A DNA stretch of 64,000 nucleotides from Astropecten irregularis (lineage: Eukaryota > Echinodermata > Asteroidea > Paxillosida > Astropectinidae): positions 7,832,614-7,896,613 of the forward strand of contig OZ020258.1 of the NCBI GenBank assembly GCA_963971285.1, given 5' to 3'. How positions within the stretch are numbered: the first letter of the stretch is position 1; every line of letters starts with the position of its first letter. Position numbers and translations under genes: made by a program. The notes under the pieces are model-generated. The model made no database searches and had not been told where the DNA came from. It worked only from the letters and a program-made list of their open reading frames with translations. This document shows positions 22,378 through 62,246 of the stretch, one piece after another.

Positions 22378-25300
22378 TTGACATTTCTCCCTCAATACTT
22401 AGGCAATCGAGCTGAAACTTGCACGAAATGTAGCCCCAGATGTTCTCTACAGGAAAGTATGAGCTGTGCCAAATTCCAAAGTCATGTTCATGGCCGAAAA
22501 TCCAAGTATAGCACCACACGCTATGCGACAAAACGGCAGAGTACGCGGCAAAACAAAACCTGCACTTAGACTATGAGACACTTTTTTCTGTTAGAGTTTG
22601 AAATTTCTCCCTCAATACAGAGGCAATCGAGCTGAAACTTGCACGAAATGTAGCCCCAGATGTACTCTAAATGAAAGTATGAGCTGTGCCAAATTCCAAA
22701 GTCATGTTCATGGCCGAAAATCCAAGTATAGCACCACACGCTATGCAACAAAACGGCAGAGCACGCGGCAAAAAAAAAACCTGCACTTAGACTATGAGAC
22801 ACTTTTTTTCTGATAGAGTTTGAAATTTCTCCCTCAATACTTAGGCAATCAAGCTGAAACTTGCACGAAATGTAGCCACAGATGTTCTCTACAGGAAAAT
22901 ATAAGCTGTGCCAAATTCCAAAGTCATGTTCATGGCCGAAAATCCAAGTATAGCACCACACGCTATGCGACAAAACGGCAGAGCAGTCGGCAGAAAAACT
23001 GCACTTAGACTATGAGACACTTTTTTCTGCTAGAGTTTGAAATTTCTCCCTCAATACTGAGGCCATCGAGCTGAAACTTGCACGAAATGTAGCCCCATAT
23101 GTAATCTACAGGAAAGTATGAGCAGTGCCAAATTCCAAAGTCATGTTCATGGCCGAAAATCCAAGTATAGCACCACACGCTATGCAACAAAACGGCAGAG
23201 CACGCGGCAAAAAAAAAACCTGCACTTAGACTATGAGACACTTTTTTCTGCTAGAGTTTAAAATTTCTCCCTCAATACTTAGGCAATCGAGCTGAAACTT
23301 GCACGAAATGTAGCCCCAGATGTAATCTACAGGAAAATATGAGCAGTGCCAAATTCCAAAGTCATGTTCATGGCCGAAAATCCAAGTATATCACCACACG
23401 CTATGCAACAAAACGGCAGAGCACGCGGCAAAAAAAAAACCTGCACTTAGACTATGAGACACTTTTTTTCTGCTAGAGTTTGAAATTTCTCCCTCAATAC
23501 TTTGGCAATCGAGCTGAAACTTGCACGAAATGTAGCCCTACATGTTCTCTACAGGAAAGTATGAGCTGTGCAAAATTCCAAAGTCATATTCATGGCCGAA
23601 AATCCAAGTATAGCACCACACGCTATGCGACAAAACGGCAGAGCAGTCGGCAGAAAAACTGCACTTAGACTATGAGACACTTTTTTCTGCTAGAGTTTGA
23701 AATTTCTCCCTCAATACTTAGGCAATCGAGCTGAAACTTGCACGAAATGTAGCCACAGATGTTCTCTACAGGAAAGTATGAGCTGTGCCAAATTCCAAAG
23801 TCATGTTCATGGCCGAAAATCCAAGTATAGCACCACACGCTATGCAACAAAACGGCAGAGCACGCGGCAAAAAAAAAACCTGCACTTAGACTATGAGACA
23901 CTTTTTTCTGTTAGAGTTTGAAATTTCTCCCTCAATACTTAGGCAATCGAGCTGAAACTTGCACGAAATGTAGCCCCAGATGTACTCTACAGGAAAATAT
24001 GAGCTGTGCCAAATTCCAAAGTCATGTCATGGCCGAAAATCCAAGTATAGCACCACACGCTATGCGACAAAACGGCAGAGCAGTCGGCAGAAAAACTGCA
24101 CTTAGACTATGAGACACTTTTTTCTGCTAGAGTTTGAAATTTCTCCCTCAATACTTAGGCAACCGAGCTGAAACTTGCACGAAATGTAGCCCCAGGTGTT
24201 CTCTACAGGAAATTATGAGCTGTGCCAAATTCCAAAGTCTTGTCATGGCCGAAAATCCAAGTATAGCACCACACGCTATGCGACAAAACGGTAGAGCACG
24301 CGGCAAAAAAAAACCTGCACTTAGAGTATGAGACACTTTTTTCTGTTAGAGTTTGAAATTTCTCCCTCAATACTTAGGCAATCGAGCTGAAACTTGCACG
24401 AAACGTAGCCCCAGATGTACTCTACAGGAAAATATGAGCTGTGCCAAATTCCAAAGTCATGTTCATGGCCGAAAATCCAAGTATAGCACCACACGCTATG
24501 CGACAAAACGGCAGAGCAGTCGGCAGAAAAACTGCACTTAGACTATGAGACACTTTTTTCTGCTAGAGTTTGAAATTTCTCCCTCAATACTGAGGCCATC
24601 GAGCTAAAACTTGCACGAAATGTAGCCCCAGATGTAATCTACAGGAAAGTATGAGCAGTGCCAAATTCCAACGTCATGTTCATGGCCGAAAATCCAAGTA
24701 TAGCACCACACGCTATGCAACAAAACGGCAGAGCACGCGGCAAAAAAAAAAACCTGCACTTAGACTATGAGACACTTTTTTCTGCTAGAGTTTAAAATTT
24801 CTCCCTCAATACTTAGGCAATCGAGCTGAAACTTGCACGAAATGTAGCCCCAGATGTAATCTACAGGAAAATATGAGCAGTGCCAAATTCCAAAGTCATG
24901 TTCATGGCCGAAAATCCAAGTATATCACCACACGCTATGCAACAAAACGGCAGAGCACGCGGCAAAAAAAAAACCTGCACTTAGACTATGAGACACTTTT
25001 TTTCTGCTAGAGTTTGAAATTTCTCCCTCAAAACTTAGGCAATCGAGCTGAAACTTGCACGAAATGTAGCCCTACATGTTCCCTACAGGAAAGAATGAGC
25101 TGTGCCAAATTCCAAAGTCATGTTCATGGCCGAAAATCCGAGTATAGCACCACACGCTATGCGACAAACGCCAGAGCAGTCGGCAGAAAAACTGCACTTA
25201 GACTATGAGACACTTTTTTCTGCTAGAGTTTGACATTTCTCCCTCAATACTTAGGCAATCGAGCTGAAACTTGCACGAAATGTAGCCCCAGATGTTCTCT

Positions 25301-26109
25301 ACAGGAAAGTATGAGCTGTGCCAAATTCCAAAGTCATGTTCATGGCCGAAAATCCAAGTATAGCACCACACGCTATGCGACAAAACGGTAGAGCACGCGG
25401 CAAAAAAAAACCTGCACTTAGAGTATGAGACACTTTTTTCTGTTAGAGTTTGAAATTTCTCCCTCAATACTTAGGCAATCGAGCTGAAACTTGCACGAAA
25501 CGTAGCCCCAGATGTACTCTACAGGAAAATATGAGCTGTGCCAAATTCCAAAGTCATGTTCATGGCCGAAAATCCAAGTATAGCACCACACGCTATGCGA
25601 CAAAACGGCAGAGCAGTCGGCAGAAAAACTGCACTTAGACTATGAGACACTTTTTTCTGCTAGAGTTTGAAATTTCTCCCTCAATACTGAGGCCATCGAG
25701 CTAAAACTTGCACGAAATGTAGCCCCAGATGTAATCTACAGGAAAGTATGAGCAGTGCCAAATTCCAAAGTCATGTTCATGGCCGAAAATCCAAGTATAG
25801 CACCACACGCTATGCAACAAAACGGCAGAGCACGCGGCAAAAAAAAAACCTGCACTTAGACTATGAGACACTTTTTTCTGCTAGAGTTTAAAATTTCTCC
25901 CTCAATACTTAGGCAATCGAGCTGAAACTTGCACGAAATGTAGCCCCAGATGTAATCTACAGGAAAATATGAGCAGTGCCAAATTCCAAAGTCATGTTCA
26001 TGGCCGAAAATCCAAGTATATCACCACACGCTATGCAACAAAACGGCAGAGCACGCGGCAAAAAAAAAACCTGCACTTAGACTATGAGACACTTTTTTTC
26101 TGCTAGAGT
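22378..26109. repeat. 17-monomer tandem duplication, copy 2
   Basis: Starts: 22378, 22598, 22820, 23037, 23258, 23480, 23697, 23918, 24134, 24353, 24570, 24792, 25014, 25230, 25450, 25667, 25888, in the same subtype order as copy 1. The last monomer is an intact f (222 bp) instead of the chimera at 22162. The final part (24353 onward) is also the beginning of large copy A. Confidence 0.9.
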
Positions 26110-27205
26110 TTGAAATTTCTCCCTCAAAACTTAGGCAATCGAGCTGAAACTTGCACGAAATGTAGCCCTACATGTTCCCTACAGGAAAGAATGAGCTGTG
26201 CCAAATTCCAAAGTCATGTTCATGGCCGAAAATCCGAGTATAGCACCACACGCTATGCGACAAACGCCAGAGCAGTCGGCAGAAAAACTGCACTTAGACT
26301 ATGAGACACTTTTTTCTGCTAGAGTTTGACATTTCTCCCTCAATACTTAGGCAATCGAGCTGAAACTTGCACGAAATGTAGCCCCAGATGTTCTCTACAG
26401 GAAAGTATGAGCTGTGCCAAATTCCAAAGTCATGTTCATGGCCGAAAATCCAAGTATAGCACCACACGCTATGCGACAAAACGGTAGAGCACGCGGCAAA
26501 AAAAAACCTGCACTTAGAGTATGAGACACTTTTTTCTGTTAGAGTTTGAAATTTCTCCATCAATACTTAGGCAATCGAGCTGAAACTTGCACGAAACGTA
26601 GCCCCAGATGTACTCTACAGGAAAATATGAGCTGTGCCAAATTCCAAAGTCATGTTCATGGCCGAAAATCCAAGTATAGCACCACACGCTATGCGACAAA
26701 ACGGCAGAGCAGTCGGCAGAAAAACTGCACTTAGACTATGAGACACTTTTTTCTGCTAGAGTTTGAAATTTCTCCCTCAATACTGAGGCCATCGAGCTAA
26801 AACTTGCACGAAATGTAGCCCCAGATGTAATCTACAGGAAAGTATGAGCAGTGCCAAATTCCAAAGTCATGTTCATGGCCGAAAATCCAAGTATAGCACC
26901 ACACGCTATGCAACAAAACGGCAGAGCACGCGGCAAAAAAAAAACCTGCACTTAGACTATGAGACACTTTTTTCTGCTAGAGTTTAAAATTTCTCCCTCA
27001 ATACTTAGGCAATCGAGCTGAAACTTGCACGAAATGTAGCCCCAGATGTAATCTACAGGAAAATATGAGCAGTGCCAAATTCCAAAGTCATGTTCATGGC
27101 CGAAAATCCAAGTATATCACCACACGCTATGCAACAAAACGGCAGAGCACGCGGCAAAAAAAAAACCTGCACTTAGACTATGAGACACTTTTTTTCTGCT
27201 AGAGT
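25014..27205. repeat. 5-monomer HOR of 1,096 bp, two copies (a* b3 d1 g f)
   Basis: Starts: 25014, 25230, 25450, 25667, 25888; 26110, 26326, 26546, 26763, 26984. A further a* at 27206 opens the next block. All a* monomers share AAAGAATGAGC. The second d1 has CTCCATCAATAC. In copy B the same block is at 44947-47138. Confidence 0.9.
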
Positions 27206-28517
27206 TTGAAATTTCTCCCTCAAAACTTAGGCAATCGAGCTGAAACTTGCACGAAATGTAGCCCTACATGTTCCCTACAGGAAAGAATGAGCTGTGCCAA
27301 ATTCCAAAGTCATGTTCATGGCCGAAAATCTGAGTATAGCACCACACGCTATGCGACAAACGCCAGAGCAGTCGGCAGAAAAACTGCACTTAGACTATGA
27401 GACACTTTTTTCTGCTAGAGTTTGACATTTCTCCCTCAATACTTAGGCAATCGAGCTGAAACTTGCACGAAATGTAGCCCCAGATGTTCTCTACAGGAAA
27501 GTATGAGCTGTGCCAAATTCCAAAGTCATGTTCATGGCCGAAAATCCAAGTATAGCACCACACGCTATGCGACAAAACGGCAGAGCACGCGGCAAAACAA
27601 AACCTGCACTTAGACTATGAGACACTTTTTTCTGTTAGAGTTTGAAATTTCTCCCTCAATACAGAGGCAATCGAGCTGAAACTTGCACGAAATGTAGCCC
27701 CAGATGTACTCTAAATGAAAGTATGAGCTGTGCCAAATTCCAAAGTCATGTTCATGGCCGAAAATCCAAGTATAGCACCACACGCTATGCGACAAAACGG
27801 CAGAGCAGTCGGCAGAAAAACTGCACTTAGACTATGAGACACTTTTTTCTGCTAGAGTTTGAAATTTCTCCCTCAATACTGAGGCCATCGAGCTGAAACT
27901 TGCACGAAATGTAGCCCCAGATGTAATCTACAGGAAAGTATGAGCAGTGCCAAATTCCAAAGTCATGTTCATGGCCGAAAATCCAAGTATAGCACCACAC
28001 GCTATGCAACAAAACGGCAGAGCACGCGGCAAAAAAAAAACCTGCACTTAGACTATGAGACACTTTTTTCTGATAGAGTTTGAAATTTCTCCCTCAATAC
28101 TTAGGCAATCGAGCTGAAACTTGCACGAAATGTAGCCACAGATGTTCTCTACAGGAAAATATAAGCTGTGCCAAATTCCAAAGTCATGTTCATGGCCGAA
28201 AATCCAAGTATAGCACCACACGCTATGCGACAAAACGGCAGAGCAGTCGGCAGAAAAACTGCACTTAGACTATGAGACACTTTTTTCTGCTAGAGTTTGA
28301 AATTTCTCCCTCAATACTGAGGCCATCGAGCTGAAACTTGCACGAAATGTAGCCCCATATGTAATCTACAGGAAAGTATGAGCAGTGCCAAATTCCAAAG
28401 TCATGTTCATGGCCGAAAATCCAAGTATAGCACCACACGCTATGCAACAAAACGGCAGAGCACGCGGCAAAAAAAAAACCTGCACTTAGACTATGAGACA
28501 CTTTTTTCTGCTAGAGT

Positions 28518-28734
28518 TTAAAATTTCTCCCTCAATACTTAGGCAATCGAGCTGAAACTTGCACGAAATGTAGCCCCAGATGTAATCTACAGGAAAATAT
28601 GAGCTGTGTCAAATTCCAAAGTCATGTTCATGGCCGAAAATCCAAGTATAGCACCACACGCTATGCGACAAAACGGCAGAGCAGTCGGCAGAAAAACTGC
28701 ACTTAGACTATGAGACACTTTTTTCTGCTAGAGT
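28518..28734. repeat. Chimeric monomer f/h2
   Basis: Begins as f (TTTAAAATTTC, TGTAATCTACAGG, AAAATATG). From GAGCTGTGTCAAATTCC it follows h2 and ends with GCAGTCGGCAG. The related stretch at 42751-43627 keeps f l k h2 as four separate monomers, so about three monomers are missing here. Shared with 48451 in copy B. Confidence 0.84.
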
Positions 28735-28952
28735 TTGAAATTTCTCCCTCAATACTGAGGCCATCGAGCTGAAACTTGCACGAAATGTAGCCCTACATGT
28801 TCTCTACAGGAAAGTATGAGCTGTGCCAAATTCCAAAGTCATATTCATGGCCGAAAATCCAAGTATAGCACCACACGCTATGCGACAAAACGGCAGAGCA
28901 GTCGGCAGAAAAACTGCACTTAGACTATGAGACACTTTTTTTCTGCTAGAGT
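28735..28952. repeat. Chimeric monomer g/l
   Basis: Begins as g (CTGAGGCCATCG). It becomes l at GCCCTACATGTTCTC and CATATTCATGG, with a GCAGTCGGCAG end and a seven-T run. The same chimera occurs at 43628, 48668 and 61809, so it marks four homologous points in the two large copies. Confidence 0.85.
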
Positions 28953-29610
28953 TTGAAATTTCTCCCTCAATACTTAGGCAATCGAGCTGAAACTTGCACG
29001 AAATGTAGCCACAGATGTTCTCTAAAGGAAAGTATGAGCTCTGCCAAATTCCAAAGTCATGTTCATGGCCGAAAATCCAAGTATAGCACCACACGCTATG
29101 CGACAAAACGGCAGAGCACGCGGCAAAAAAAAAACTGCACTTAGACTATGAGACACTTTTTTCTGTTAGAATTTGAAATTTCTCCCTCAATACAGAGGCA
29201 ATCGAGCTGAAACTTGCACGAAATGTAGCCCCAGATGTACTCTAAATGAAAGTATGAGCTGTGTCAAATTTCAAAGTCATGTTCATGGCTGAAAATCCAA
29301 GTATAGCACCACACGCTATGCGACAAAACGGCAGAGCAGTCGGCAGAAAAACTGCACTTAGACTATGAGACACTTTTTTCTGCTAGAGTTTGAAATTTCT
29401 CCCTCAATACTGAGGCCATCGAGCTGAAACTTGCAAGAAATGTAGCCCCATATGTAATCTACAGGAAAGTATGAGCAGTGCCAAATTCCAAAGTCATGTT
29501 CATGGCCGAAAATCCAAGTATAGCACCACACGCTATGCAACAAAACGGCAGAGCACGCGGCAAAAAAAAAACCTGCACTTAGACTATGAGACACTTTTTT
29601 CTGCTAGAGT

Positions 29611-29826
29611 TTAAAATTTCTCCCTCAATACTTAGGCAATCGAGCTGAAACTTGCACGAAATGTAGCCCTAGATGTAATCTACAGGAAAATATGAGCACT
29701 GCCAAATTCCAAAGTCATGTTCATGGCCGAAAATCCAAGTATATCACCACACGCTATGCGACAAACGCCAGAGCAGTCGGCAGAAAAACTGCACTTAGAC
29801 TATGAGACACTTTTTTCTGCTAGAGT
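29611..29826. repeat. Chimeric monomer f/d2
   Basis: Left part f (TTTAAAATTTC, TGTAATC, with private GCCCTAGATG). Right part d2 (GAGCACTGCC, TATATC, GACAAACGCCAG). Copies at 49544 and 62685 share the private CCCTAGATG, tying the three regions to one ancestor. Confidence 0.84.
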
Positions 29827-30046
29827 TTGACATTTCTCCCTCAATACAGAGGCAATCGAGCTGAAACTTGCACGAAATGTAGCCCCAGATGTTCTCTACA
29901 GGAAAGTATGAGCTGTGCCAAATTCCAAAGTCATGTTCATGGCCGAAAATCCAAGTATAGCACCACACGCTATGCGACAAAACGGCAGAGCACGCGGCAA
30001 AAAAAAAACTGCACTTAGACTATGAGACACTTTTTTCTGTTAGAAT

Positions 30047-33000
30047 TTGAAATTTCTCCCTCAATACAGAGGCAATCGAGCTGAAACTTGCACGAAATGT
30101 AGCCCCAGATGTACTCTAAATGAAAGTATGAGCTCTGTCAAATTCCAAGGTCATGTTCATGGCCGAAAATCCAAGTATAGCACCACACGCTATGCGACAA
30201 AACGGCAGAGCAGTCGGCAGAAAAACTGCACTTAGACTATGAGACACTTTTTCTCTGCTAGAGTTTGAAACTTCTCCCTCAATACTGAGGCCATCGAGCT
30301 GAAACTTGCACGAAATGTAGCCCCCGATGTAATCTACAGGAAAGTATGAGCAGTGCCAAATTCCAAAGTCATGTTCATGGCCGAAAATCCAAGTATAGCA
30401 CCACACGCTATGCAACAAAACGGCAGAGCACGCGGCAAAAAAAAAACCTGCACTTAGACTATGAGACACTTTTTTCTGTTAGAGTTTGAAATTTCTCCCT
30501 CAATACTTAGGCAATCGAGCTGAAACTTGCACGAAATGTAGCCCCAGATGTAATCTACAGGAAAATATGAGCTGTGCCAAATTCCAAAGTCATGTTCATG
30601 GCCGAAAATCCAAGTATAGCACCACACGCTATGCGACAAAACGGCAGAGCAGTCGGCAGAAAAACTGCACTTAGACTATGAGACACTTTTTTCTGCTAGA
30701 GTTTGAAATTTCTCCCTCAATACTTAGGCAACCGAGCTGAAACTTGCAAGAAATGTAGCCCCGGATGTAATCTACAGGAAAGTATGAGCAGTGCCAAATT
30801 CCAAAGTCATGTTCATGGCCGAAAATCCAAGTATAGCACCACACGCTATGCAACAAAACGGCAGAGCACGCGACAAAAAAAAAACCTGCACTTAGACTAT
30901 GAGACACTTTTTTTCTGCTAGAGTTTAAAATTTCTCCCTCAATACTTAGGCAATCGAGCTGAAACTTGCACGAAATGTAGCCCCAGATGTAATCTACAGG
31001 AAAATATGAGCAGTGCCAAATTCCAAAGTCATGTTCATGGCCGAAAATCCAAGTATATCACTACACGCTATGCAACAAAACGGCAGAGCAAGCGGCAAAA
31101 AAAAACCTGCACTAAGACTATGAGACACTTTTTTCTGATAGAGTTTGAAATTTCTCCCTCAAAACTTAGGCAATCGAGCTGAAACTTGCACGAAATGTAG
31201 CCCTACATGTTCCCTACAGGAAAGTATGAGCTGTGCCAAATTCCAAAGTCATGTTCATGGCCGAAAATCCGAGTATAGCACCACACGCTATGCGACAAAC
31301 GCCAGAGCAGTCGGCAGAAAAACTGCACTTAGACTATGAGACACTTTTTTCTGCTAGAGTTTGACATTTCTCCCTCAATACTTAGGCAATCGAGCTGAAA
31401 CTTGCACGAAATGTAGCCCCAGATGTAATCTACAGGAAAATATGAGCAGTGCCAAATTCCAAAGTCATGTTCATGGCCGAAAATCCAAGTATATCACCAC
31501 ACGCTATGCAACAAAACGGCAGAGCACGCGGCAAAAAAAAAACCTGCACTTAGACTATGAGACACTTTTTTCTGCTAGAGTTTGAAATTTCTCCCTCAAT
31601 ACTTAGGCAATCGAGCTGAAACTTGCACGAAATGTAGCCCTACATGTTCTCTACGGGAATGTATGAGCTGTGCCAAATTCCAAAGTCATGTTCATGGCCG
31701 AAAATCCGAGTATAGCACCACACGCTATGCGACAAACGCCAGAGCAGTCGGCAGAAAAACTGCACTTAGACTATGAGACACTTTTTTCTGCTAGAGTTTG
31801 ACATTTCTCCCTCAATACTTAGGCAATCGAGCTGAAACTTGCACGAAATGTAGCCCCAGATGTTCTCTACAGGAAATTATGAGCTGTGCCAAATTCCAAA
31901 GTCATGTTCATGGCCGAAAATCCAAGTATAGCACCACACGCTATGCGACAAAACGGCAGAGCACGCGGCAAAAAAAAAACTGCACTTAGACTATGAGACA
32001 CTTTTTTCTGTTAGAATTTGAAATTTCTCCCTCAATACAGAGGCAATCGAGCTGAAACTTGCACGAAATGTAGCCCCAGATGTACTCTAAATGAAAGTAT
32101 GAGCTGTGCCAAATTCAAAAGTCATGTTCATGGCCGAAAATCCAAGTATAGCACCACACGCTATGCGACAAAACGGCAGAGCAGTCGGCAGAAAAACTGC
32201 ACTTAGACTATGAGACACTTTTTCTCTGCTAGAGTTTGAAATTTCTCCCTCAATACTGAGGCCATCGAGCTGAAACTTGCACGAAATGTAGCCCCCGATG
32301 TAATCTACAGGAAAGTATGAGCAGTGCCAAATTCCAAAGTCATGTTCATGGCCGAAAATCCAAGTATAGCACCACACGCTATGCAACAAAACGGCAGAGC
32401 ACGCGGCAAAAAAAAAACCTGCACTTAGACTATGAGACACTTTTTTCTGTTAGAGTTTGAAATTTCTCCCTCAATACTTAGGCAATCGAGCTGAAACTTG
32501 CACGAAATGTAGCCCCAGATGTACTCTACAGGAAAATATGAGCTGTGCCAAATTCCAAAGTCATGTTCATGGCCGAAAATCCAAGTATAGCACCACACGC
32601 TATGCGACAAAACGGCAGAGCAGTCGGCAGAAAAACTGCACTTAGACTATGAGACACTTTTTTCTGCTAGAGTTTGAAATTTCTCCCTCAATACTTAGGC
32701 AACCGAGCTGAAACTTGCACGAAATGTAGCCCCAGATGTAATCTACAGGAAAGTATGAGCAGTGCCAAATTCCAAAGTCATGTTCATGGCCGAAAATCCA
32801 AGTATAGCACCACACGCTATGCAACAAAACGGCAGAGCACGCGACAAAAAAAAAACCTGCACTTAGACTATGAGACACTTTTTTTCTGCTAGAGTTTAAA
32901 ATTTCTCCCTCAATACTTAGGCAATCGAGCTGAAACTTGCACGAAATGTAGCCCCAGATGTAATCTACAGGAAAATATGAGCAGTGCCAAATTCCAAAGT

Positions 33001-33990: not shown

Positions 33991-34864
33991 TTGAAATTTC
34001 TCCCTCAATACAGAGGCAATCGAGCTGAAACTTGCACGAAATGTAGCCCCAGATGTACTCTAAATGAAAGTATGAGCTGTGCCAAATTCAAAAGTCATGT
34101 TCATGGCCGAAAATCCAAGTATAGCACCACACGCTATGCGACAAAACGGCAGAGCAGTCGGCAGAAAAACTGCACTTAGACTATGAGACACTTTTTTCTG
34201 CTAGAGTTTGAAATTTCTCCCTCAATACTGAGGCCATCGAGCTGAAACTTGCACGAAATGTAGCCCCCGATGTAATCTACAGGAAAATATGAGCAGTGCC
34301 AAATTCCAAAGTCATGTTCATGGCCGAAAATCCAAGTATATCACCACACGCTATGCAACAAAACGGCAGAGCACGCGGCAAAAAAAAAACCTGCACTTAG
34401 ACTATGAGACACTTTTTTCTGCTAGAGTTTGAAATTTCTCCCTCAATACTTAGGCAATCGAGCTGAAACTTGCACGAAATGTAGCCCTACATGTTCTCTA
34501 CAGGAAAGTATGAGCTGTGCCAAATTCCAAAGTCATGTTCATGGCCGAAAATCCGAGTATAGCACCACACGCTATGCGACAAACGCCAGAGCAGTCGGCA
34601 GAAAAACTGCACTTAGACTATGAGACACTTTTTTCTGCTAGAGTTTGACATTTCTCCCTCAAAACTTAGGCAATCGAGCTGAAACTTGCACGAAATGTAG
34701 CCCCAGATGTTCTCTACAGGAAAGTATGAGCTGTGCCAAATTCCAAAGTCATGTTCATGGCCGAAAATCCAAGTATAGCACCACACGCTATGCGACAAAA
34801 CGGCAGAGCACGCGGCAAAAAAAAAACTGCACTTAGACTATGAGACACTTTTTTCTGTTAGAAT
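33991..34864. repeat. Deleted 9-mer (four monomers: h2, g/f, l/a, b4)
   Basis: Starts: 33991, 34208, 34429, 34645. Relative to the full 9-mer, the run i n f a and one boundary are missing, replaced by the g/f chimera at 34208. The b4 at 34645 has CTCAAAACTTAGG. A second copy of the same deleted form is at 38368-39241, and both are found in copy B (53924 and 56330). Confidence 0.86.
34208..34428. repeat. Chimeric monomer g/f in the deleted 9-mer
   Basis: Left part g (CTGAGGCCATCG, CCCCCGATG). From AAAATATGAGCAG onward it follows the f-like b/f monomer (TATATCACC, A10). The switch lies in TGTAATCTACAGGAAA, identical in both parents. Five monomers of the 9-mer are lost. Same junction at 38585, 54141 and 56547. 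Confidence 0.85.
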
Positions 34865-49979: not shown

Positions 49980-52900
49980 TTGAAATTTCTCCCTCAATAC
50001 AGAGGCAATCGAGCTGAAACTTGCACGAAATGTAGCCCCAGATGTACTCTAAATGAAAGTATGAGCTCTGTCAAATTCCAAGGTCATGTTCATGGCCGAA
50101 AATCCAAGTATAGCACCACACGCTATGCGACAAAACGGCAGAGCAGTCGGCAGAAAAACTGCACTTAGACTATGAGACACTTTTTCTCTGCTAGAGTTTG
50201 AAACTTCTCCCTCAATACTGAGGCCATCGAGCTGAAACTTGCACGAAATGTAGCCCCCGATGTAATCTACAGGAAAGTATGAGCAGTGCCAAATTCCAAA
50301 GTCATGTTCATGGCCGAAAATCCAAGTATAGCACCACACGCTATGCAACAAAACGGCAGAGCACGCGGCAAAAAAAAAACCTGCACTTAGACTATGAGAC
50401 ACTTTTTTCTGTTAGAGTTTGAAATTTCTCCCTCAATACTTAGGCAATCGAGCTGAAACTTGCACGAAATGTAGCCCCAGATGTAATCTACAGGAAAATA
50501 TGAGCTGTGCCAAATTCCAAAGTCATGTTCATGGCCGAAAATCCAAGTATAGCACCACACGCTATGCGACAAAACGGCAGAGCAGTCGGCAGAAAAACTG
50601 CACTTAGACTATGAGACACTTTTTTCTGCTAGAGTTTGAAATTTCTCCCTCAATACTTAGGCAACCGAGCTGAAACTTGCAAGAAATGTAGCCCCGGATG
50701 TAATCTACAGGAAAGTATGAGCAGTGCCAAATTCCAAAGTCATGTTCATGGCCGAAAATCCAAGTATAGCACCACACGCTATGCAACAAAACGGCAGAGC
50801 ACGCGACAAAAAAAAAACCTGCACTTAGACTATGAGACACTTTTTTTCTGCTAGAGTTTAAAATTTCTCCCTCAATACTTAGGCAATCGAGCTGAAACTT
50901 GCACGAAATGTAGCCCCAGATGTAATCTACAGGAAAATATGAGCAGTGCCAAATTCCAAAGTCATGTTCATGGCCGAAAATCCAAGTATATCACTACACG
51001 CTATGCAACAAAACGGCAGAGCAAGCGGCAAAAAAAAACCTGCACTAAGACTATGAGACACTTTTTTCTGATAGAGTTTGAAATTTCTCCCTCAAAACTT
51101 AGGCAATCGAGCTGAAACTTGCACGAAATGTAGCCCTACATGTTCCCTACAGGAAAGTATGAGCTGTGCCAAATTCCAAAGTCATGTTCATGGCCGAAAA
51201 TCCGAGTATAGCACCACACGCTATGCGACAAACGCCAGAGCAGTCGGCAGAAAAACTGCACTTAGACTATGAGACACTTTTTTCTGCTAGAGTTTGACAT
51301 TTCTCCCTCAATACTTAGGCAATCGAGCTGAAACTTGCACGAAATGTAGCCCCAGATGTAATCTACAGGAAAATATGAGCAGTGCCAAATTCCAAAGTCA
51401 TGTTCATGGCCGAAAATCCAAGTATATCACCACACGCTATGCAACAAAACGGCAGAGCACGCGGCAAAAAAAAAACCTGCACTTAGACTATGAGACACTT
51501 TTTTCTGCTAGAGTTTGAAATTTCTCCCTCAATACTTAGGCAATCGAGCTGAAACTTGCACGAAATGTAGCCCTACATGTTCTCTACGGGAAAGTATGAG
51601 CTGTGCCAAATTCCAAAGTCATGTTCATGGCCGAAAATCCGAGTATAGCACCACACGCTATGCGACAAACGCCAGAGCAGTCGGCAGAAAAACTGCACTT
51701 AGACTATGAGACACTTTTTTCTGCTAGAGTTTGACATTTCTCCCTCAATACTTAGGCAATCGAGCTGAAACTTGCACGAAATGTAGCCCCAGATGTTCTC
51801 TACAGGAAATTATGAGCTGTGCCAAATTCCAAAGTCATGTTCATGGCCGAAAATCCAAGTATAGCACCACACGCTATGCGACAAAACGGCAGAGCACGCG
51901 GCAAAAAAAAAACTGCACTTAGACTATGAGACACTTTTTTCTGTTAGAATTTGAAATTTCTCCCTCAATACAGAGGCAATCGAGCTGAAACTTGCACGAA
52001 ATGTAGCCCCAGATGTACTCTAAATGAAAGTATGAGCTGTGCCAAATTCAAAAGTCATGTTCATGGCCGAAAATCCAAGTATAGCACCACACGCTATGCG
52101 ACAAAACGGCAGAGCAGTCGGCAGAAAAACTGCACTTAGACTATGAGACACTTTTTCTCTGCTAGAGTTTGAAATTTCTCCCTCAATACTGAGGCCATCG
52201 AGCTGAAACTTGCACGAAATGTAGCCCCCGATGTAATCTACAGGAAAGTATGAGCAGTGCCAAATTCCAAAGTCATGTTCATGGCCGAAAATCCAAGTAT
52301 AGCACCACACGCTATGCAACAAAACGGCAGAGCACGCGGCAAAAAAAAAACCTGCACTTAGACTATGAGACACTTTTTTCTGTTAGAGTTTGAAATTTCT
52401 CCCTCAATACTTAGGCAATCGAGCTGAAACTTGCACGAAATGTAGCCCCAGATGTACTCTACAGGAAAATATGAGCTGTGCCAAATTCCAAAGTCATGTT
52501 CATGGCCGAAAATCCAAGTATAGCACCACACGCTATGCGACAAAACGGCAGAGCAGTCGGCAGAAAAACTGCACTTAGACTATGAGACACTTTTTTCTGC
52601 TAGAGTTTGAAATTTCTCCCTCAATACTTAGGCAACCGAGCTGAAACTTGCACGAAATGTAGCCCCAGATGTAATCTACAGGAAAGTATGAGCAGTGCCA
52701 AATTCCAAAGTCATGTTCATGGCCGAAAATCCAAGTATAGCACCACACGCTATGCAACAAAACGGCAGAGCACGCGACAAAAAAAAAACCTGCACTTAGA
52801 CTATGAGACACTTTTTTTCTGCTAGAGTTTAAAATTTCTCCCTCAATACTTAGGCAATCGAGCTGAAACTTGCACGAAATGTAGCCCCAGATGTAATCTA

Positions 52901-53923
52901 CAGGAAAATATGAGCAGTGCCAAATTCCAAAGTCATGTTCATGGCCGAAAATCCAAGTATATCACTACACGCTATGCAACAAAACGGCAGAGCAAGCGGC
53001 AAAAAAAAACCTGCACTAAGACTATGAGACACTTTTTTCTGATAGAGTTTGAAATTTCTCCCTCAAAACTTAGGCAATCGAGCTGAAACTTGCACGAAAT
53101 GTAGCCCTACATGTTCCCTACAGGAAAGTATGAGCTGTGCCAAATTCCAAAGTCATGTTCATGGCCGAAAATCCGAGTATAGCACCACACGCTATGCGAC
53201 AAACGCCAGAGCAGTCGGCAGAAAAACTGCACTTAGACTATGAGACACTTTTTTCTGCTAGAGTTTGACATTTCTCCCTCAATACTTAGGCAATCGAGCT
53301 GAAACTTGCACGAAATGTAGCCCCAGATGTAATCTACAGGAAAATATGAGCAGTGCCAAATTCCAAAGTCATGTCCATGGCCGAAAATCCAAGTATATCA
53401 CCACACGCTATGCAACAAAACGGCAGAGCACGCGGCAAAAAAAAAACCTGCACTTAGACTATGAGACACTTTTTTCTGCTAGAGTTTGAAATTTCTCCCT
53501 CAATACTTAGGCAATCGAGCTGAAACTTGCACGAAATGTAGCCCTACATGTTCTCTTTTCAGGAAAGTATGAGCTGTGCCAAATTCCAAAGTCATGTTCA
53601 TGGCCGAAAATCCGAGTATAGCACCACACGCTATGCGACAAACGCCAGAGCAGTCGGCAGAAAAACTGCACTTAGACTATGAGACACTTTTTTCTGCTAG
53701 AGTTTGACATTTCTCCCTCAATACTTAGGCAATCGAGCTGAAACTTGCACGAAATGTAGCCCCAGATGTTCTCTACAGGAAAGTATGAGCTGTGCCAAAT
53801 TCCAAAGTCATGTTCATGGCCGAAAATCCAAGTATAGCACCACACGCTATGCGACAAAACGGTAGAGCACGCGGCAAAAAAAAAACTGCACTTAGACTAT
53901 GAGACACTTTTTTCTGATAGAAT
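49980..53923. repeat. Copy B counterpart of 9-mer copies 1 and 2
   Basis: First copy from 49980, second from 51951, both in the order h2 g i n f a b/f l/a b4. CTCTTTTCAGG recurs near 53,553. Differences from copy A that I noticed: AAAGTATG instead of AATGTATG near 51,590, and ATGTCCATGGCC instead of ATGTTCATGGCC near 53,393. Confidence 0.9.
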
Positions 53924-56767
53924 TTGAAATTTCTCCCTCAATACAGAGGCAATCGAGCTGAAACTTGCACGAAATGTAGCCCCAGATGTACTCTAAATGA
54001 AAGTATGAGCTGTGCCAAATTCAAAAGTCATGTTCATGGCCGAAAATCCAAGTATAGCACCACACGCTATGCGACAAAACGGCAGAGCAGTCGGCAGAAA
54101 AACTGCACTTAGACTATGAGACACTTTTTTCTGCTAGAGTTTGAAATTTCTCCCTCAATACTGAGGCCATCGAGCTGAAACTTGCACGAAATGTAGCCCC
54201 CGATGTAATCTACAGGAAAATATGAGCAGTGCCAAATTCCAAAGTCATGTTCATGGCCGAAAATCCAAGTATATCACCACACGCTATGCAACAAAACGGC
54301 AGAGCACGCGGCAAAAAAAAAACCTGCACTTAGACTATGAGACACTTTTTTCTGCTAGAGTTTGAAATTTCTCCCTCAATACTTAGGCAATCGAGCTGAA
54401 ACTTGCACGAAATGTAGCCCTACATGTTCTCTACAGGAAAGTATGAGCTGTGCCAAATTCCAAAGTCATGTTCATGGCCGAAAATCCGAGTATAGCACCA
54501 CACGCTATGCGACAAACGCCAGAGCAGTCGGCAGAAAAACTGCACTTAGACTATGAGACACTTTTTTCTGCTAGAGTTTGAAATTTCTCCCTCAAAACTT
54601 AGGCAATCGAGCTGAAACTTGCACGAAATGTAGCCCCAGATGTTCTCTACAGGAAAGTATGAGCTGTGCCAAATTCCAAAGTCATGTTCATGGCCGAAAA
54701 TCCAAGTATAGCACCACACGCTATGCGACAAAACGGCAGAGCACGCGGCAAAAAAAAAACTGCACTTAGACTATGAGACACTTTTTTCTGTTAGAATTTG
54801 AAATTTCTCCCTCAATACTTAGGCAACCGAGCTGAAACTTGCACGAAATGTAGCCCCAGATGTACTCTACAGGAAAATATGAGCTGTGCCAAATTCCAAA
54901 GTCATGTTCATGGCCGAAAATCCAAGTATAGCACCACACGCTATGCGACAAAACGGCAGAGCAGTCGGCAGAAAAACTGCACTTAGACTATGAGACACTT
55001 TTTTCTGCTAGAGTTTGAAATTTCTCCCTCAATACTTAGGCAACCGAGCTGAAACTTGCACGAAATGTAGCCCCAGATGTAATCTACAGGAAAGTATGAG
55101 CAGTGCCAAATTCCAAAGTCATGTTCATGGCCGAAAATCCAAGTATAGCACCACACGCTATGCAACAAAACGGCAGAGCACGCGACAAAAAAAAAACCTG
55201 CACTTAGACTATGAGACACTTTTTTTCTGCTAGAGTTTAAAATTTCTCCCTCAATACTTAGGCAATCGAGCTGAAACTTGCACGAAATGTAGCCCCAGAT
55301 GTAATCTACAGGAAAATATGAGCAGTGCCAAATTCCAAAGTCATGTTCATGGCCGAAAATCCAAGTATATCACTACACGCTATGCAACAAAACGGCAGAG
55401 CAAGCGGCAAAAAAAAACCTGCACTAAGACTATGAGACACTTTTTTCTGATAGAGTTTGAAATTTCTCCCTCAAAACTTAGGCAATCGAGCTGAAACTTG
55501 CACGAAATGTAGCCCTACATGTTCCCTACAGGAAAGTATGAGCTGTGCCAAATTCCAAAGTCATGTTCATGGCCGAAAATCCGAGTATAGCACCACACGC
55601 TATGCGACAAACGCCAGAGCAGTCGGCAGAAAAACTGCACTTAGACTATGAGACACTTTTTTCTGCTAGAGTTTGACATTTCTCCCTCAATACTTAGGCA
55701 ATCGAGCTGAAACTTGCACGAAATGTAGCCCCAGATGTAATCTACAGGAAAATATGAGCAGTGCCAAATTCCAAAGTCATGTTCATGGCCGAAAATCCAA
55801 GTATATCACCACACGCTATGCAACAAAACGGCAGAGCACGCGGCAAAAAAAAAACCTGCACTTAGACTATGAGACACTTTTTTCTGCTAGAGTTTGAAAT
55901 TTCTCCCTCAATACTTAGGCAATCGAGCTGAAACTTGCACGAAATGTAGCCCTACATGTTCTCTACAGGAAAGTATGAGCTGTGCCAAATTCCAAAGTCA
56001 TGTTCATGGCCGAAAATCCGAGTATAGCACCACACGCTATGCGACAAACGCCAGAGCAGTCGGCAGAAAAACTGCACTTAGACTATGAGACACTTTTTTC
56101 TGCTAGAGTTTGACATTTCTCCCTCAATACTTAGGCAATCGAGCTGAAACTTGCACGAAATGTAGCCCCAGATGTTCTCTACAGGAAAGTATGAGCTGTG
56201 CCAAATTCCAAAGTCATGTTCATGGCCGAAAATCCAAGTATAGCACCACACGCTATGCGACAAAACGGCAGAGCACGCGGCAAAAAAAAAACTGCACTTA
56301 GACTATGAGACACTTTTTTCTGATAGAATTTGAAATTTCTCCCTCAATACAGAGGCAATCGAGCTGAAACTTGCACGAAATGTAGCCCCAGATGTACTCT
56401 AAATGAAAGTATGAGCTGTGCCAAATTCAAAAGTCATGTTCATGGCCGAAAATCCAAGTATAGCACCACACGCTATGCGACAAAACGGCAGAGCAGTCGG
56501 CAGAAAAACTGCACTTAGACTATGAGACACTTTTTTCTGCTAGAGTTTGAAATTTCTCCCTCAATACTGAGGCCATCGAGCTGAAACTTGCACGAAATGT
56601 AGCCCCCGATGTAATCTACAGGAAAATATGAGCAGTGCCAAATTCCAAAGTCATGTTCATGGCCGAAAATCCAAGTATATCACCACACGCTATGCAACAA
56701 AACGGCAGAGCACGCGGCAAAAAAAAAACCTGCACTTAGACTATGAGACACTTTTTTCTGCTAGAGT
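53924..56767. repeat. Copy B: deleted 9-mer followed by one 9-mer instead of two
   Basis: Starts: 53924 h2, 54141 g/f, 54362 l/a, 54578 b4, 54798 chimeric i, 55015 n, 55236 f, 55457 a, 55673 b/f, 55894 l/a, 56110 b4, 56330 h2, 56547 g/f. Copy A has 18 monomers between 34865 and 38806; copy B has nine. The b4 at 54578 has GAAATTTC where 34645 has GACATTTC. Confidence 0.9.
54798..55014. repeat. Chimeric i monomer at the 9-monomer excision point
   Basis: The left part has TTAGAATTTG before the start and GGCAACCGAG, as at 34865. The right part has TGTACTCTACAGG, as at 36836 (34865 has TGTAATC). The exchange therefore lies between about 54,831 and 54,863. From here the match to copy A is at +17,962 instead of +19,933 bp, a loss of 1,971 bp. 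Confidence 0.9.
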
Positions 56768-59617
56768 TTGAAATTTCTCCCTCAATACTTAGGCAATCGA
56801 GCTGAAACTTGCACGAAATGTAGCCCTACATGTTCTCTACAGGAAAGTATGAGCTGTGCCAAATTCCAAAGTCATGTTCATGGCCGAAAATCCGAGTATA
56901 GCACCACACGCTATGCGACAAACGCCAGAGCAGTCGGCAGAAAAACTGCACTTAGACTATGAGACACTTTTTTCTGCTAGAGTTTGACATTTCTCCCTCA
57001 AAACTTAGGCAATCGAGCTGAAACTTGCACGAAATGTAGCCCCAGATGTTCTCTACAGGAAAGTATGAGCTGTGCCAAATTCCAAAGTCATGTTCATGGC
57101 CGAAAATCCAAGTATAGCACCACACGCTATGCGACAAAACGGCAGAGCACGCGGCAAAAAAAAAACTGCACTTAGACTATGAGACACTTTTTTCTGTTAG
57201 AATTTGAAATTTCTCCCTCAATACAGAGGCAATCGAGCTGAAACTTGCACGAAATGTAGCCCCAGATGTACTCTAAATGAAAGTATGAGCTGTGCCAAAT
57301 TCAAAAGTCATGTTCATGGCCGAAAATCCAAGTATATCACCACACGCTATGCGACAAAACGGCAGAGCAGTCGGCAGAAAAACTGCACTTAGACTATGAG
57401 ACACTTTTTTCTGCTAGAGTTTGAAATTTCTCCCTCAATACTGAGGCCATCGAGCTGAAACTTGCACGAAATGTAGCCCCCGATGTAATCTACAGGAAAG
57501 TATGAGCAGTGCCAAATTCCAAAGTCATGTTCATGGCCGAAAATCCAAGTATAGCACCACACGCTATGCAACAAAACGGCAGAGCACGCGGCAAAAAAAA
57601 AACCTGCACTTAGACTATGAGACACTTTTTTCTGTTAGAGTTTGAAATTTCTCCCTCAATACTTAGGCAATCGAGCTGAAACTTGCACGAAATGTAGCCC
57701 CAGATGTAATCTACAGGAAAATATGAGCAGTGCCAAATTCCAAAGTCATGTTCATGGCCGAAAATCCAAGTATATCACCACACGCTATGCAACAAAACGG
57801 CAGAGCACGCGGCAAAAAAAAACCCTGCACTTAGACTATGAGACACTTTTTTCTGTTAGAGTTTGAAATTTCTCCCTCAATACTTAGGCAATCGAGCTGA
57901 AACTTGCACGAAACGTAGCCCCAGATGTACTCTACAGGAAAATATGAGCTGTGCCAAATTCCAAAGTCATGTTCATGGCCGAAAATCCAAGTATAGCACC
58001 ACACGCTATGCGACAAAACGGCAGAGCAGTCGGCAGAAAAACTGCACTTAGACTATGAGACACTTTTTTCTGCTAGAGTTTGAAATTTCTCCCTCAATAC
58101 TGAGGCCATCGAGCTAAAACTTGCACGAAATGTAGCCCCAGATGTAATCTACAGGAAAGTATGAGCAGTGCCAAATTCCAAAGTCATGTTCATGGCCGAA
58201 AATCCAAGTATAGCACCACACGCTATGCAACAAAACGGCAGAGCACGCGGCAAAAAAAAAACCTGCACTTAGACTATGAGACACTTTTTTCTGCTAGAGT
58301 TTAAAATTTCTCCCTCAATACTTAGGCAATCGAGCTGAAACTTGCACGAAATGTAGCCCCAGATGTAATCTACAGGAAAATATGAGCAGTGCCAAATTCC
58401 AAAGTCATGTTCATGGCCGAAAATCCAAGTATATCACCACACGCTATGCAACAAAACGGCAGAGCACGCGGCAAAAAAAAAACCTGCACTTAGACTATGA
58501 GACACTTTTTTTCTGCTAGAGTTTGAAATTTCTCCCTCAAAACTTAGGCAATCGAGCTGAAACTTGCACGAAATGTAGCCCTACATGTTCCCTACAGGAA
58601 AGTATGAGCTGTGCCAAATTCCAAAGTCATGTTCATGGCCGAAAATCCGAGTATAGCACCACACGCTATGCGACAAACGCCAGAGCAGTCGGCAGAAAAA
58701 CTGCACTTAGACTATGAGACACTTTTTTCTGCTAGAGTTTGACATTTCTCCCTCAATACTTAGGCAATCGAGCTGAAACTTGCACGAAATGTAGCCCCAG
58801 ATGTTCTCTACAGGAAAGTATGAGCTGTGCCAAATTCCAAAGTCATGTTCATGGCCGAAACTCCAAGTATAGCACCACACGCTATGCGACAAAACGGCAG
58901 AGCACGCGGCAAAACAAAACCTGCACTTAGACTATGAGACACTTTTTTCTGTTAGAGTTTGAAATTTCTCCCTCAATACAGAGGCAATCGAGCTGAAACT
59001 TGCACGAAATGTAGCCCCAGATGTACTCTAAATGAAAGTATGAGCTGTGCCAAATTCCAAAGTCATGTTCATGGCCGAAAATCCAAGTATAGCACCACAC
59101 GCTATGCGACAAAACGGCAGAGCAGTCGGCAGAAAAACTGCACTTAGACTATGAGACACTTTTTTCTGCTAGAGTTTGAAATTTCTCCCTCAATACTGAG
59201 GCCATCGAGCTAAAACTTGCACGAAATGTAGCCCCAGATGTAATCTACAGGAAAGTATGAGCAGTGCCAAATTCCAAAGTCATGTTCATGGCCGAAAATC
59301 CAAGTATAGCACCACACGCTATGCAACAAAACGGCAGAGCACGCGGCAAAAAAAAAACCTGCACTTAGACTATGAGACACTTTTTTCTGCTAGAGTTTAA
59401 AATTTCTCCCTCAATACTTAGGCAATCGAGCTGAAACTTGCACGAAATGTAGCCCCAGATGTAATCTACAGGAAAATATGAGCAGTGCCAAATTCCAAAG
59501 TCATGTTCATGGCCGAAAATCCAAGTATATCACCACACGCTATGCAACAAAACGGCAGAGCACGCGGCAAAAAAAAAACCTGCACTTAGACTATGAGACA
59601 CTTTTTTCTGCTAGAGT
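56768..59617. repeat. Copy B counterpart of the post-9-mer block
   Basis: Starts: 56768, 56984, 57204, 57421, 57642, 57863, 58080, 58301, 58523, 58739, 58959, 59176, 59397, at +17,962 bp from 38806-41655. GGCCGAAACTCC in b2 is shared. Differences: CAGAGGCAATCG at 57204 (CAGAAGC in A), TGTAATC at 57642 (TGTACTC in A). Confidence 0.9.
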
Positions 59618-62246
59618 TTGAAATTTCTCCCTCAATACTTAGGCAATCGAGCTGAAACTTGCACGAAATGTAGCCCTACATGTTCTCTACAGGAAAGTAT
59701 GAGCTGTGCCAAATTCCAAAGTCATGTTCATGGCCGAAAATCCGAGTATAGCACCACACGCTATGCGACAAACGCCAGAGCAGTCGGCAGAAAAACTGCA
59801 CTTAGACTATGAGACACTTTTTTCTGCTAGAGTTTGACATTTCTCCCTCAATACTTAGGCAATCGAGCTGAAACTTGCACGAAATGTAGCCCCAGATGTT
59901 CTCTACAGGAAAGTATGAGCTGTGCCAAATTCCAAAGTCATGTTCATGGCCGAAAATCCAAGTATAGCACCACACGCTATGCGACAAAACGGCAGAGCAC
60001 GCGGAAAAACAAAACCTGCACTTAGACTATGAGACACTTTTTTCTGTTAGAGTTTGAAATTTCTCCCTCAATACAGAGGCAATCGAGCTGAAACTTGCAC
60101 GAAATGTAGCCCCAGATGTACTCTAAATGAAAGTATGAGCTGTGCCAAATTCCAAAGTCATGTTCATGGCCGAAAATCCAAGTATAGCACCACACGCTAT
60201 GCGACAAAACGGCAGAGCAGTCGGCAGAAAAACTGCACTTAGACTATGAGACACTTTTTTCTGCTAGAGTTTGAAATTTCTCCCTCAATACTGAGGCCAT
60301 CGAGCTGAAACTTGCACGAAATGTAGCCCCAGATGTAATCTACAGGAAAGTATGAGCAGTGCCAAATTCCAAAGTCATGTTCATGGCCGAAAATCCAAGT
60401 ATAGCACCACACGCTATGCAACAAAACGGCAGAGCACGCGGCAAAAAAAAAAAAAAAAAAAATTAGACTATGAGACACTTTTTTCTGATAGAGTTTGAAA
60501 TTTCTCCCTCAATACTTAGGCAATCGAGCTGAAACTTGCACGAAATGTAGCCACAGATGTTCTCTACAGGAAAATATAAGCTGTGCCAAATTCCAAAGTC
60601 ATGTTCATGGCCGAAAATCCAAGTATAGCACCACACGCTATGCGACAAAACGGCAGAGCAGTCGGCAGAAAAACTGCACTTAGACTATGAGACACTTTTT
60701 TCTGCTAGAGTTTGAAATTTCTCCCTCAATACTGAGGCCATCGAGCTGAAACTTGCACGAAATGTAGCCCCATATGTAATCTACAGGAAAGTATGAGCAG
60801 TGCCAAATTCCAAAGTCATGTTCATGGCCGAAAATCCAAGTATAGCACCACACGCTATGCAACAAAACGGCAGAGCACGCGGCAAAAAAAAAACCTGCAC
60901 TTAGACTATGAGACACTTTTTTCTGCTAGAGTTTAAAATTTCTCCCTCAATACTTAGGCAATCGAGCTGAAACTTGCACGAAATGTAGCCCCAGATGTAA
61001 TCTACAGGAAAATATGAGCAGTGCCAAATTCCAAAGTCATGTTCATGGCCGAAAATCCAAGTATATCACCACACGCTATGCAACAAAACGGCAGAGCACG
61101 CGGCAAAAAAAAAACCTGCACTTAGACTATGAGACACTTTTTTCTGCTAGAGTTTGAAATTTCTCCCTCAATACTTAGGCAATCGAGCTGAAACTTGCAC
61201 GAAATGTAGCCCTACATGTTCTCTACAGGAAAGTATGAGCTGTGCCAAATTCCAAAGTCATATTCATGGCCGAAAATCCAAGTATAGCACCACACGCTAT
61301 GCGACAAAACGGCAGAGCAGTCGGCAGAAAAACTGCACTTAGACTATGAGACACTTTTTTTCTGCTAGAGTTTGAAATTTCTCCCTCAATACTTAGGCAA
61401 TCGAGCTGAAACTTGCACGAAATGTAGCCACAGATGTTCTCTACAGGAAAGTATGAGCTGTGCCAAATTCCAAAGTCATGTTCATGGCCGAAAATCCAAG
61501 TATAGCACCACACGCTATGCGACAAAACGGCAGAGCACGCGGCAAAAAAAAAACTGCACTTAGACTATGAGACACTTTTTTCTGTTAGAATTTGAAATTT
61601 CTCCCTCAATACAGAGGCAATCGAGCTGAAACTTGCACGAAATGTAGCCCCAGATGTACTCTAAATGAAAGTATGAGCTGTGTCAAATTCCAAAGTCATG
61701 TTCATGGCCGAAAATCCAAGTATAGCACCACACGCTATGCGACAAAACGGCAGAGCAGTCGGCAGAAAAACTGCACTTAGACTATGAGACACTTTTTTCT
61801 GCTAGAGTTTGAAATTTCTCCCTCAATACTGAGGCCATCGAGCTGAAACTTGCACGAAATGTAGCCCTACATGTTCTCTACAGGAAAGTATGAGCTGTGC
61901 CAAATTCCAAAGTCATATTCATGGCCGAAAATCCAAGTATAGCACCACACGCTATGCGACAAAACGGCAGAGCAGTCGGCAGAAAAACTGCACTTAGACT
62001 ATGAGACACTTTTTTTCTGCTAGAGTTTGAAATTTCTCCCTCAATACTTAGGCAATCGAGCTGAAACTTGCACGAAATGTAGCCACAGATGTTCTCTAAA
62101 GGAAAGTATGAGCTGTGCCAAATTCCAAAGTCATGTTCATGGCCGAAAATCCAAGTATAGCACCACACGCTATGCGACAAAACGGCAGAGCACGCGGCAA
62201 AAAAAAAACTGCACTTAGACTATGAGACACTTTTTTCTGTTAGAAT
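59618..62246. repeat. Copy B counterpart of the terminal block
   Basis: Starts: 59618 l/a, 59834 b2, 60054 h, 60271 g, 60495 j, 60712 g, 60933 f, 61154 l, 61372 k, 61592 h2, 61809 g/l, 62027 k. It keeps separate h and g where copy A has a fusion. The b2 at 59834 has GCGGAAAAACAAAACC instead of GCGGCAAAACAAAACC. Confidence 0.89.
60443..60462. repeat. Expanded A20 homopolymer
   Basis: Twenty consecutive A residues follow GCACGCGGC in the g monomer at 60271, directly joined to TTAGACTATG. Other long-end monomers have A8-A12 followed by CCTGCAC or CTGCAC. Here the CCTGCAC is absent, so the change is both an expansion and a replacement (net +3 bp). It may be a real slippage event or a sequencing or consensus error in a homopolymer. 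Confidence 0.85.

What the first reader, a model, noticed from the sequence alone, without database searches (positions are those of the whole stretch)
24134..62246. Near-identical ~20 kb tandem duplication (91 monomers) with a defined breakpoint
From 24353 to 34645 every monomer start recurs at +19,933 bp with the same rare private bases. The joint is the chimeric monomer at 44066 (h2 left, c-type right). Very few base differences are visible over 10 kb, so the duplication is young. Differences that do exist (near 31,657/51,590, 33,460/53,393, 34,650/54,583) argue that it is not a pure assembly copy.
Basis: seen in the sequence. Interest (0 to 1): 0.7.

Follow-up and report, generated by a model that had tools for sequence, protein, structure and literature searches.

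The report
Young 20-kb duplication in starfish satellite
A starfish chromosome carries, inside a long array of a 217-221 base repeat, a block of 91 repeats copied recently next to itself with only a handful of changes; it is the largest of many similar copies found around it and fits the way such arrays are generally thought to grow.

Summary
Confirmed, refined, and ordinary in kind. [quoted passage not shown] Copy A (24243-44175, 91 monomers) is followed directly by copy B (44176-62405, 83 monomers). Over 17,909 aligned bases there are 8 substitutions, 0.045%, against a mean of 5.6% between window monomers. The +19,933 register stops near 34.9 kb because B lacks nine monomers that A and a third copy have; B also has about one monomer more near 60.2-60.4 kb. 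The joint lies within 49 bp (44176-44224), in register, in a 220-bp monomer. A later exact 3.7-kb duplication overlaps the left edge. In the 264 kb held, 17 other tandem duplications of 4-20 monomers were taken to the joint; 77% of satellite bases have a partner of 1 kb or more at 99.8% or better. Best reading: in-register unequal homologous exchange in a possibly centromeric array. An assembly or haplotype artefact is unlikely, but reads are needed to exclude it.

The parts
1..64000 (+). uninterrupted 217-221 bp satellite array, one orientation
   Evidence: Tandem repeats with 92% matches; satellite coverage 1.0 on one strand across the window; 290 window monomers scored
24243..44175 (+). copy A of the duplication, 91 monomers, 19,933 bp
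44176..62405 (+). copy B, 83 monomers counted in 44176-62357
44176..44224 (+). joint: 49-bp tract where end-of-unit and start-of-unit sequence cannot be told apart; inside a 220-bp monomer (44043-44262)
   Evidence: longest exactly recurring string across it 830 bp at the 44175 edge and 520 bp at the 44224 edge, in the 264 kb held
34895..36865 (+). nine-monomer (1,971 bp) block in A that B lacks; the edges share a 37-bp identical tract (34895-34931 = 36866-36902)
   Evidence: a third copy (A 34961-39187 at +28,697) has the A-like arrangement with 6 mismatches in 4,227 bp
60226..60445 (+). about one monomer (220 bp) more in B than in A; edges uncertain within 60141-60462
60443..60462 (+). 20-base A run where copy A has A10 plus CCTGCAC, at the edge of the extra monomer; the only A run of 15 or more in the window
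18511..22233 (+). first copy of a 17-monomer tandem duplication (3,723 bp, 0 differences)
22237..25959 (+). second copy of the 17-monomer duplication; overlaps the left edge of copy A and carries copy A's derived base at 24672
63658..64000 (+). start of a third, partial copy (of A 34961-39187) that runs on to 67884 beyond the window
9758..10116 (+). the only irregular-length monomers of the window (199 and 160 bp): an out-of-register joint

Best explanation
A satellite array, possibly centromeric, gained 91 monomers at once when two misaligned copies of the array (sister chromatids most likely) recombined in monomer register. The monomer at the end of the unit was joined to the monomer at its start, leaving a normal-length chimeric monomer at the joint. 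Afterwards each copy picked up a few substitutions of its own, copy B lost nine monomers and gained about one by the same kind of exchange, and a further exact 17-monomer duplication was laid across the left edge. Shown: the two copies, their differences, the in-register joint and the two indels. Supported by parsimony: B lost rather than A gained the nine monomers, and the 20-kb event came before the 17-monomer one. Inferred: unequal homologous crossover rather than another homology-guided route, the sister chromatid as partner, the centromeric location. The confidence given is for a real, in-register, homology-guided duplication; crossover against break-induced replication is left open within it.
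For: 8 substitutions in 17,909 aligned bp. Unit of 91 monomers and a joint inside a 220-bp monomer. For the 18 tandem duplications that I took to the joint, the monomers touching the joint interval are 215-221 bp, with one exception: a 304-bp monomer within the 1,783-bp ambiguous interval of the 1,825-bp event. Polarity: derived in A at 24672, 31660, 37754, 39266; in B at 53375, 54582, 60005; 39747/57709 undecided. The 51-base context of A's base at 24672 occurs elsewhere in the 264 kb only at 20946, its partner in the exact 3.7-kb duplication, so that duplication most simply came after the 20-kb one. A third copy has A's arrangement across the nine-monomer block. Local copying is pervasive: 77% of 254,503 satellite bases have a partner of at least 1 kb at 99.8% or better, 58% one of at least 2 kb.
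Against: No reads, depth or second haplotype were at hand. The 49-bp joint and the 37-bp edge of the nine-monomer loss fit any homology-guided mechanism, not only crossover. The 19,933-bp unit is 4.6 times the next largest pure tandem unit found (4,372 bp), so it could come from a different process. B 44165-44684 also matches 25329-25848 exactly over 520 bp, longer than its 429-bp exact match to 24243, so the left edge is uncertain by the local five-monomer period. Third-copy and context arguments use sequence of the same array, which is itself being copied about. The centromeric role rests on place and abundance only.
Confidence: 0.78

Rival explanations
1. Haplotypic false duplication: the two parental versions of one array segment were laid in series in a primary assembly that is not fully phased.
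For: The genome note says the assembly is not fully phased and that 87 haplotypic duplications were corrected by curation. A 200-base gap starts at C22:7,832,036, 578 bases left of the window, and a 5,942-bp exact copy ends at it, so the array was hard to assemble. Substitutions derived in both copies fit two alleles as well as two copies.
Against: There is no N in the window, so the joint is not a scaffold gap. The longest exactly recurring string across the joint is 830 bp in the 264 kb held, short for a false overlap of roughly 10-kb reads (inference). 0.045% is low for alleles of a broadcast spawner (recalled; this animal's heterozygosity was not seen). The longest stretch with no A/B difference is 6,987 bp, shorter than the mean read of 9.85 kb that I compute from 22.66 Gb in 2.30 million reads.
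Confidence: 0.12
2. Break-induced replication or template switching copied a long tract, rather than a reciprocal unequal crossover.
For: The same in-register joints are expected; the array holds nested copies of very different size, 4 to 91 monomers. A human study argues that simple unequal crossover does not explain the spread of new units (passages of PMC11062924).
Against: Nothing in the sequence separates it from crossover; a reciprocal deletion product cannot be seen in one haplotype. It is a variant of the best explanation, not an alternative to a real in-register duplication.
Confidence: 0.3
3. Re-insertion by homology of an excised circular DNA of the array.
For: A circle of 91 monomers put back next to its source would give a tandem copy. 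No specific support was found.
Against: A circle put back elsewhere or opened elsewhere would give a distant or rotated copy; A and B are adjacent and collinear apart from the two monomer-scale indels.
Confidence: 0.05

Closest known systems
Human alpha-satellite higher-order repeat arrays
   Same: Head-to-tail monomers, whole-monomer gains and losses, recent local copies; [quoted passage not shown]
   Different: Monomer about 171 bp there, 217-221 bp here; no single array-wide higher-order unit here: the offset to the nearest most-similar monomer is spread over 7, 5, 6, 11, 8, 12 and more monomers; no exact minimal CENP-B box in the window on either strand (motif recalled).
Cascading higher-order repeats of human chromosome 15
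   Same: By its title, multi-monomer repeats nested in larger ones (title and start of abstract of PMC11050224 seen in a search listing).
   Different: Not compared in detail; different sequence and host.

Membership tests
Satellite DNA (long head-to-tail array) | Long uninterrupted array of one monomer in one orientation | tested here: met
   The 64-kb window and all but about 9 kb (plus a 200-base gap) of the 264 kb held are satellite on one strand
Satellite DNA (long head-to-tail array) | High copy number in the genome | tested here: met
   19,768 exact hits of one 26-mer (13,782 forward, 5,986 reverse; reversed control 0 and 0); 673 of them in the 264 kb with its 1,154 scored monomers, 131 in the window
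Centromeric satellite | One main internal cluster per chromosome | tested here: inconclusive
   Two single-letter-variant patterns gave 76 and 98 hits, listed in full; clusters at C8 about 21.5-21.65 Mb, C15 14.0-16.0, C18 8.3-8.5, C19 6.9-7.1, C22 7.9-9.0 Mb; but single hits only on C9, C12 and C14, a cluster at the very start of C13, a stray on C22 at 13.43 Mb, many small contigs, and not all chromosomes sampled. Hits listed for any one contig lie on one strand
Centromeric satellite | Carries CENP-A chromatin | not testable with these tools
   No chromatin data
CENP-B-box satellite | TTCGNNNNANNCGGG in monomers | tested here: not met
   0 exact in the window on either strand; none within 2 substitutions in the doubled consensus; motif recalled
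Higher-order repeat array | A multi-monomer unit repeated in tandem, more alike than monomers are | tested here: met
   Locally: 26 rows of tandem diagonals of 873-4,372 bp with at most 0.5% mismatch against 5.6% between window monomers
Higher-order repeat array | One unit length dominating the array | tested here: not met
   Offsets to the nearest most-similar monomer are broad: the commonest, 7 monomers, holds 103 of 1,154
Tandem duplication by in-register homologous exchange | Joint keeps monomer phase and length | tested here: met
   220-bp monomer at the joint; joint interval at monomer columns 132-180

The most novel reading that the evidence does not exclude
Starfish putative centromeres grow in bursts: single recombination events copy tens of kilobases (up to 91 monomers) in register, so that most of the array is younger than a few tens of thousands of generations and no stable higher-order unit ever forms.
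Probability: 0.25. Interest if true: 0.5.

Novelty: new member of a known kind. Interest (0 to 1): 0.3.

Why it matters
It gives a base-level record of ordered duplication, mutation and loss in a possibly centromeric array of an echinoderm. No title on an echinoderm or starfish centromeric satellite stood among the papers listed by my searches (20 listed of 88; 15 of 214; 12 of 228; 0; 3 of 3; 0); those lists are capped and cover open-licence PMC texts only, so this is weak evidence of absence. The process itself is well known for satellites.

Tried and rejected
Global alignment with MAFFT gave 210 substitutions against 18,109 matches; it failed to place the nine-monomer and one-monomer indels, so I rejected it for a diagonal-path alignment. 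A first block partition gave 15 substitutions in 19,879 bp, but it set about 1,971 bases of B against A twice; the refined partition gives 8 in 17,909. The refined count leaves out A 34932-36902 (the 1,971 bases B lacks), A 42179-42280 and B 60141-60462 (around the one-monomer gain, where a 20-base A run sits and where one search shows mismatches).

A regular-expression monomer parse found 450 anchors and missed most monomers; it was replaced by wrap-around alignment with 1,208 starts. For one search, units outside 205-235 bp or holding N were dropped first (1,181 kept), then 27 divergent ones, all at 139,053-147,691 in window coordinates, in the non-satellite island (1,154 kept).

Breakpoint hotspot: 14 of 18 joints (intervals of 150 bp or less) are spread over the monomer; no hotspot is claimed and no test was run. 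Single-strand DNA folding of one monomer is no stronger than its shuffles (z 0.15), so I dropped a hairpin-based mechanism. Inverted repeats of 60 bases or more were not found in L026 or L027. Of the 26 rows of tandem diagonals I took 17, plus the 20-kb event, to the joint. The other nine (offsets 873-1,532 bp) were not taken further: eight lie, by their coordinates, on larger events or are copies of each other; the ninth, 873 bp at 6498, was left out as the shortest.

Dating: by hand, with an assumed 1e-8 per site per generation (not measured for this animal), 0.045% between copies gives about 22,000 generations; a rough guide only.

Full report
Where it is. The window is G000:C22:7,832,614-7,896,613. 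C22 is 16,458,913 bases, C8 38,228,203, C25 14,444,246 and C168, the mitochondrial contig, 16,335; the whole is 475,729,200 bases. [quoted passage not shown] parts 1 and 2 of 4 read, and passages). Two figures are close but not equal: 475.73 Mb here against 475.80 Mb in the paper, and 168 contigs here against 186 scaffolds. COX1 of C168 is open under the invertebrate and echinoderm mitochondrial codes and not under table 11; that it looks like a starfish is my recollection.

The array. The whole window is a head-to-tail satellite. Over the 264 kb held (window plus 100 kb on either side) 1,154 monomers were scored, most of the parsed units being 216-222 bp. Mean pairwise difference is 5.6% in the window (290 monomers) and 6.1% over all 1,154. 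One 26-mer of the monomer occurs 19,768 times exactly in the genome, and the reversed control never (only the first 100 places are listed). It occurs 673 times in the 264 kb (1,154 monomers) and 131 times in the window (290 monomers). At those rates of 58% and 45% the genome would hold about 34,000 to 44,000 monomers, or 7 to 10 Mb (inference). In the capped list and the full lists (76 and 98 hits) all hits on any one contig lie on one strand. On C22 the array is continuous, apart from a gap and an island, over the fetched 7.73-8.00 Mb, and sampled hits go on to 8.99 Mb, near the middle of the chromosome, with one stray at 13.43 Mb. Other contigs have only single hits (C9, C12, C14) or a cluster at the contig start (C13). 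This fits a centromeric satellite but does not prove it.

The duplication. A 24243-34931 equals B 44176-54864 with 4 substitutions; A 36903-42178 equals B 54865-60140 with 4; A 42281-44224 equals B 60463-62405 with none apart from a one-base indel at A 43394/43395. In all, 8 substitutions in 17,909 bp. Copy A has 91 monomers; B has 83, that is 91 minus 9 plus 1. The nine-monomer difference has a 37-bp identical tract at its edges, and a third partial copy (A 34961-39187 at +28,697, 6 mismatches in 4,227 bp) has A's arrangement, so B probably lost the block.

The joint. A and B abut: 24243 + 19933 = 44176. The crossover is inside 44176-44224, at monomer columns 132-180, in a monomer of 220 bp. 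The longest exactly recurring string that covers the 44175 edge is 830 bp and that covering the 44224 edge 520 bp; for 150 random window positions the median is 1,511 bp and the 5th percentile 387 bp. So the joint is more distinctive than most of the array, though not uniquely so, which argues against a false overlap. The test covers only the 264 kb held. Against a sharp left edge: B 44165-44684 matches 25329-25848 exactly over 520 bp, while its exact match to 24243 lasts 429 bp, so the start is uncertain by the local five-monomer period.

Who changed. By 51-base contexts and the column consensus, and at 37754 also by the third copy, four substitutions are derived in A (24672, 31660, 37754, 39266), three in B (53375, 54582, 60005) and one is undecided (39747/57709). 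For 31660 neither context occurs elsewhere and the consensus alone decides; for 54582 the context and not the column consensus decides. A balanced split is what two copies mutating on their own would give; it would also fit two alleles. The context of A's base at 24672 occurs elsewhere in the 264 kb only at 20946, its partner in the exact 3,723-bp duplication 18511-22233/22237-25959. The simplest order is: 20-kb duplication, mutation at 24672, 17-monomer duplication.

Its neighbours. In the 264 kb, 45 diagonals of at least 1.8 kb have 1% mismatch or less, and 26 rows are pure tandem (length at least 0.9 of the offset, mismatch up to 0.5%, offset at least 860 bp). The 20-kb event is not among those 26 because its indels break the diagonal. 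I took 17 of the 26 plus the 20-kb event to the joint. The 17 units are 4 to 20 monomers; the one in question is 91. Monomers at the joints are 215-221 bp in all 18, except for one 304-bp monomer within the wide joint interval of the 1,825-bp event. Some of the 17 overlap one another, so they are not all independent. Outside the island 17 units are irregular in length (outside 214-225 bp); several look like copies of one variant, and one spans the assembly gap. On C15, hits at 14,196,527, 14,199,149 and 14,200,892 each recur at +5,455, so local copying does not seem to be confined to this chromosome; I could not fetch that array to check.

What it is. An ordinary mode of satellite growth, caught at high resolution: in-register homologous exchange between misaligned copies of the array. 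Human work names unequal crossing over and saltatory amplification for centromeric arrays, and argues that simple unequal crossover alone does not explain the spread of new units (passages of PMC11062924). The present data cannot separate crossover from break-induced replication.

Limits. No reads, depth or alternate haplotype were at hand. The genome note reports about 49-fold HiFi coverage, 786 gaps, a contig N50 of 0.9 Mb and an assembly that is not fully phased; its main text has no word beginning with satellite or centromer. The longest run without any A/B difference is 6,987 bp, below the 9.85-kb mean read (22.66 Gb / 2.30 million), so reads should be able to separate the copies (inference).

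Noticed in passing
L026:5101 to L027:3957 (C22 about 7,971,714-7,980,570; outside the window): A non-satellite island of about 9 kb inside the array, made partly of other tandem repeats (units of 102, 80 and 186 bp).
   Followed up: partly
C22:7,832,036 (578 bases left of the window): A 200-base gap; the right copy of a 5,942-bp exact repeat, whose left copy lies 48,732 bases upstream, ends exactly at the gap, which may mark an assembly break.
   Followed up: partly
window 60443-60462: A run of 20 A where copy A has A10 plus CCTGCAC, at the edge of the extra monomer of copy B; the only A run of 15 or more in the window. Slippage scar or consensus error.
   Followed up: partly
L029 (C131, 102,890 bases): Bacterial-looking cytochrome oxidase genes (COX1, and a COX2 with a CNACHS, haem-binding-like, motif near the C-terminus; motif recalled) on an unplaced contig: symbiont or contaminant.
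   Followed up: no
L031 (C25:9,949,547-9,953,518): A partial mitochondrial COX1 copy on a chromosome-size contig, in a locus that also holds 200 N: nuclear copy or misplaced mitochondrial sequence.
   Followed up: no
window coordinates -80345, -77645, -75820, -73995 (left of the window): Four copies of a 304-bp monomer variant (about 85 bases longer than usual), at places covered by local duplications.
   Followed up: no
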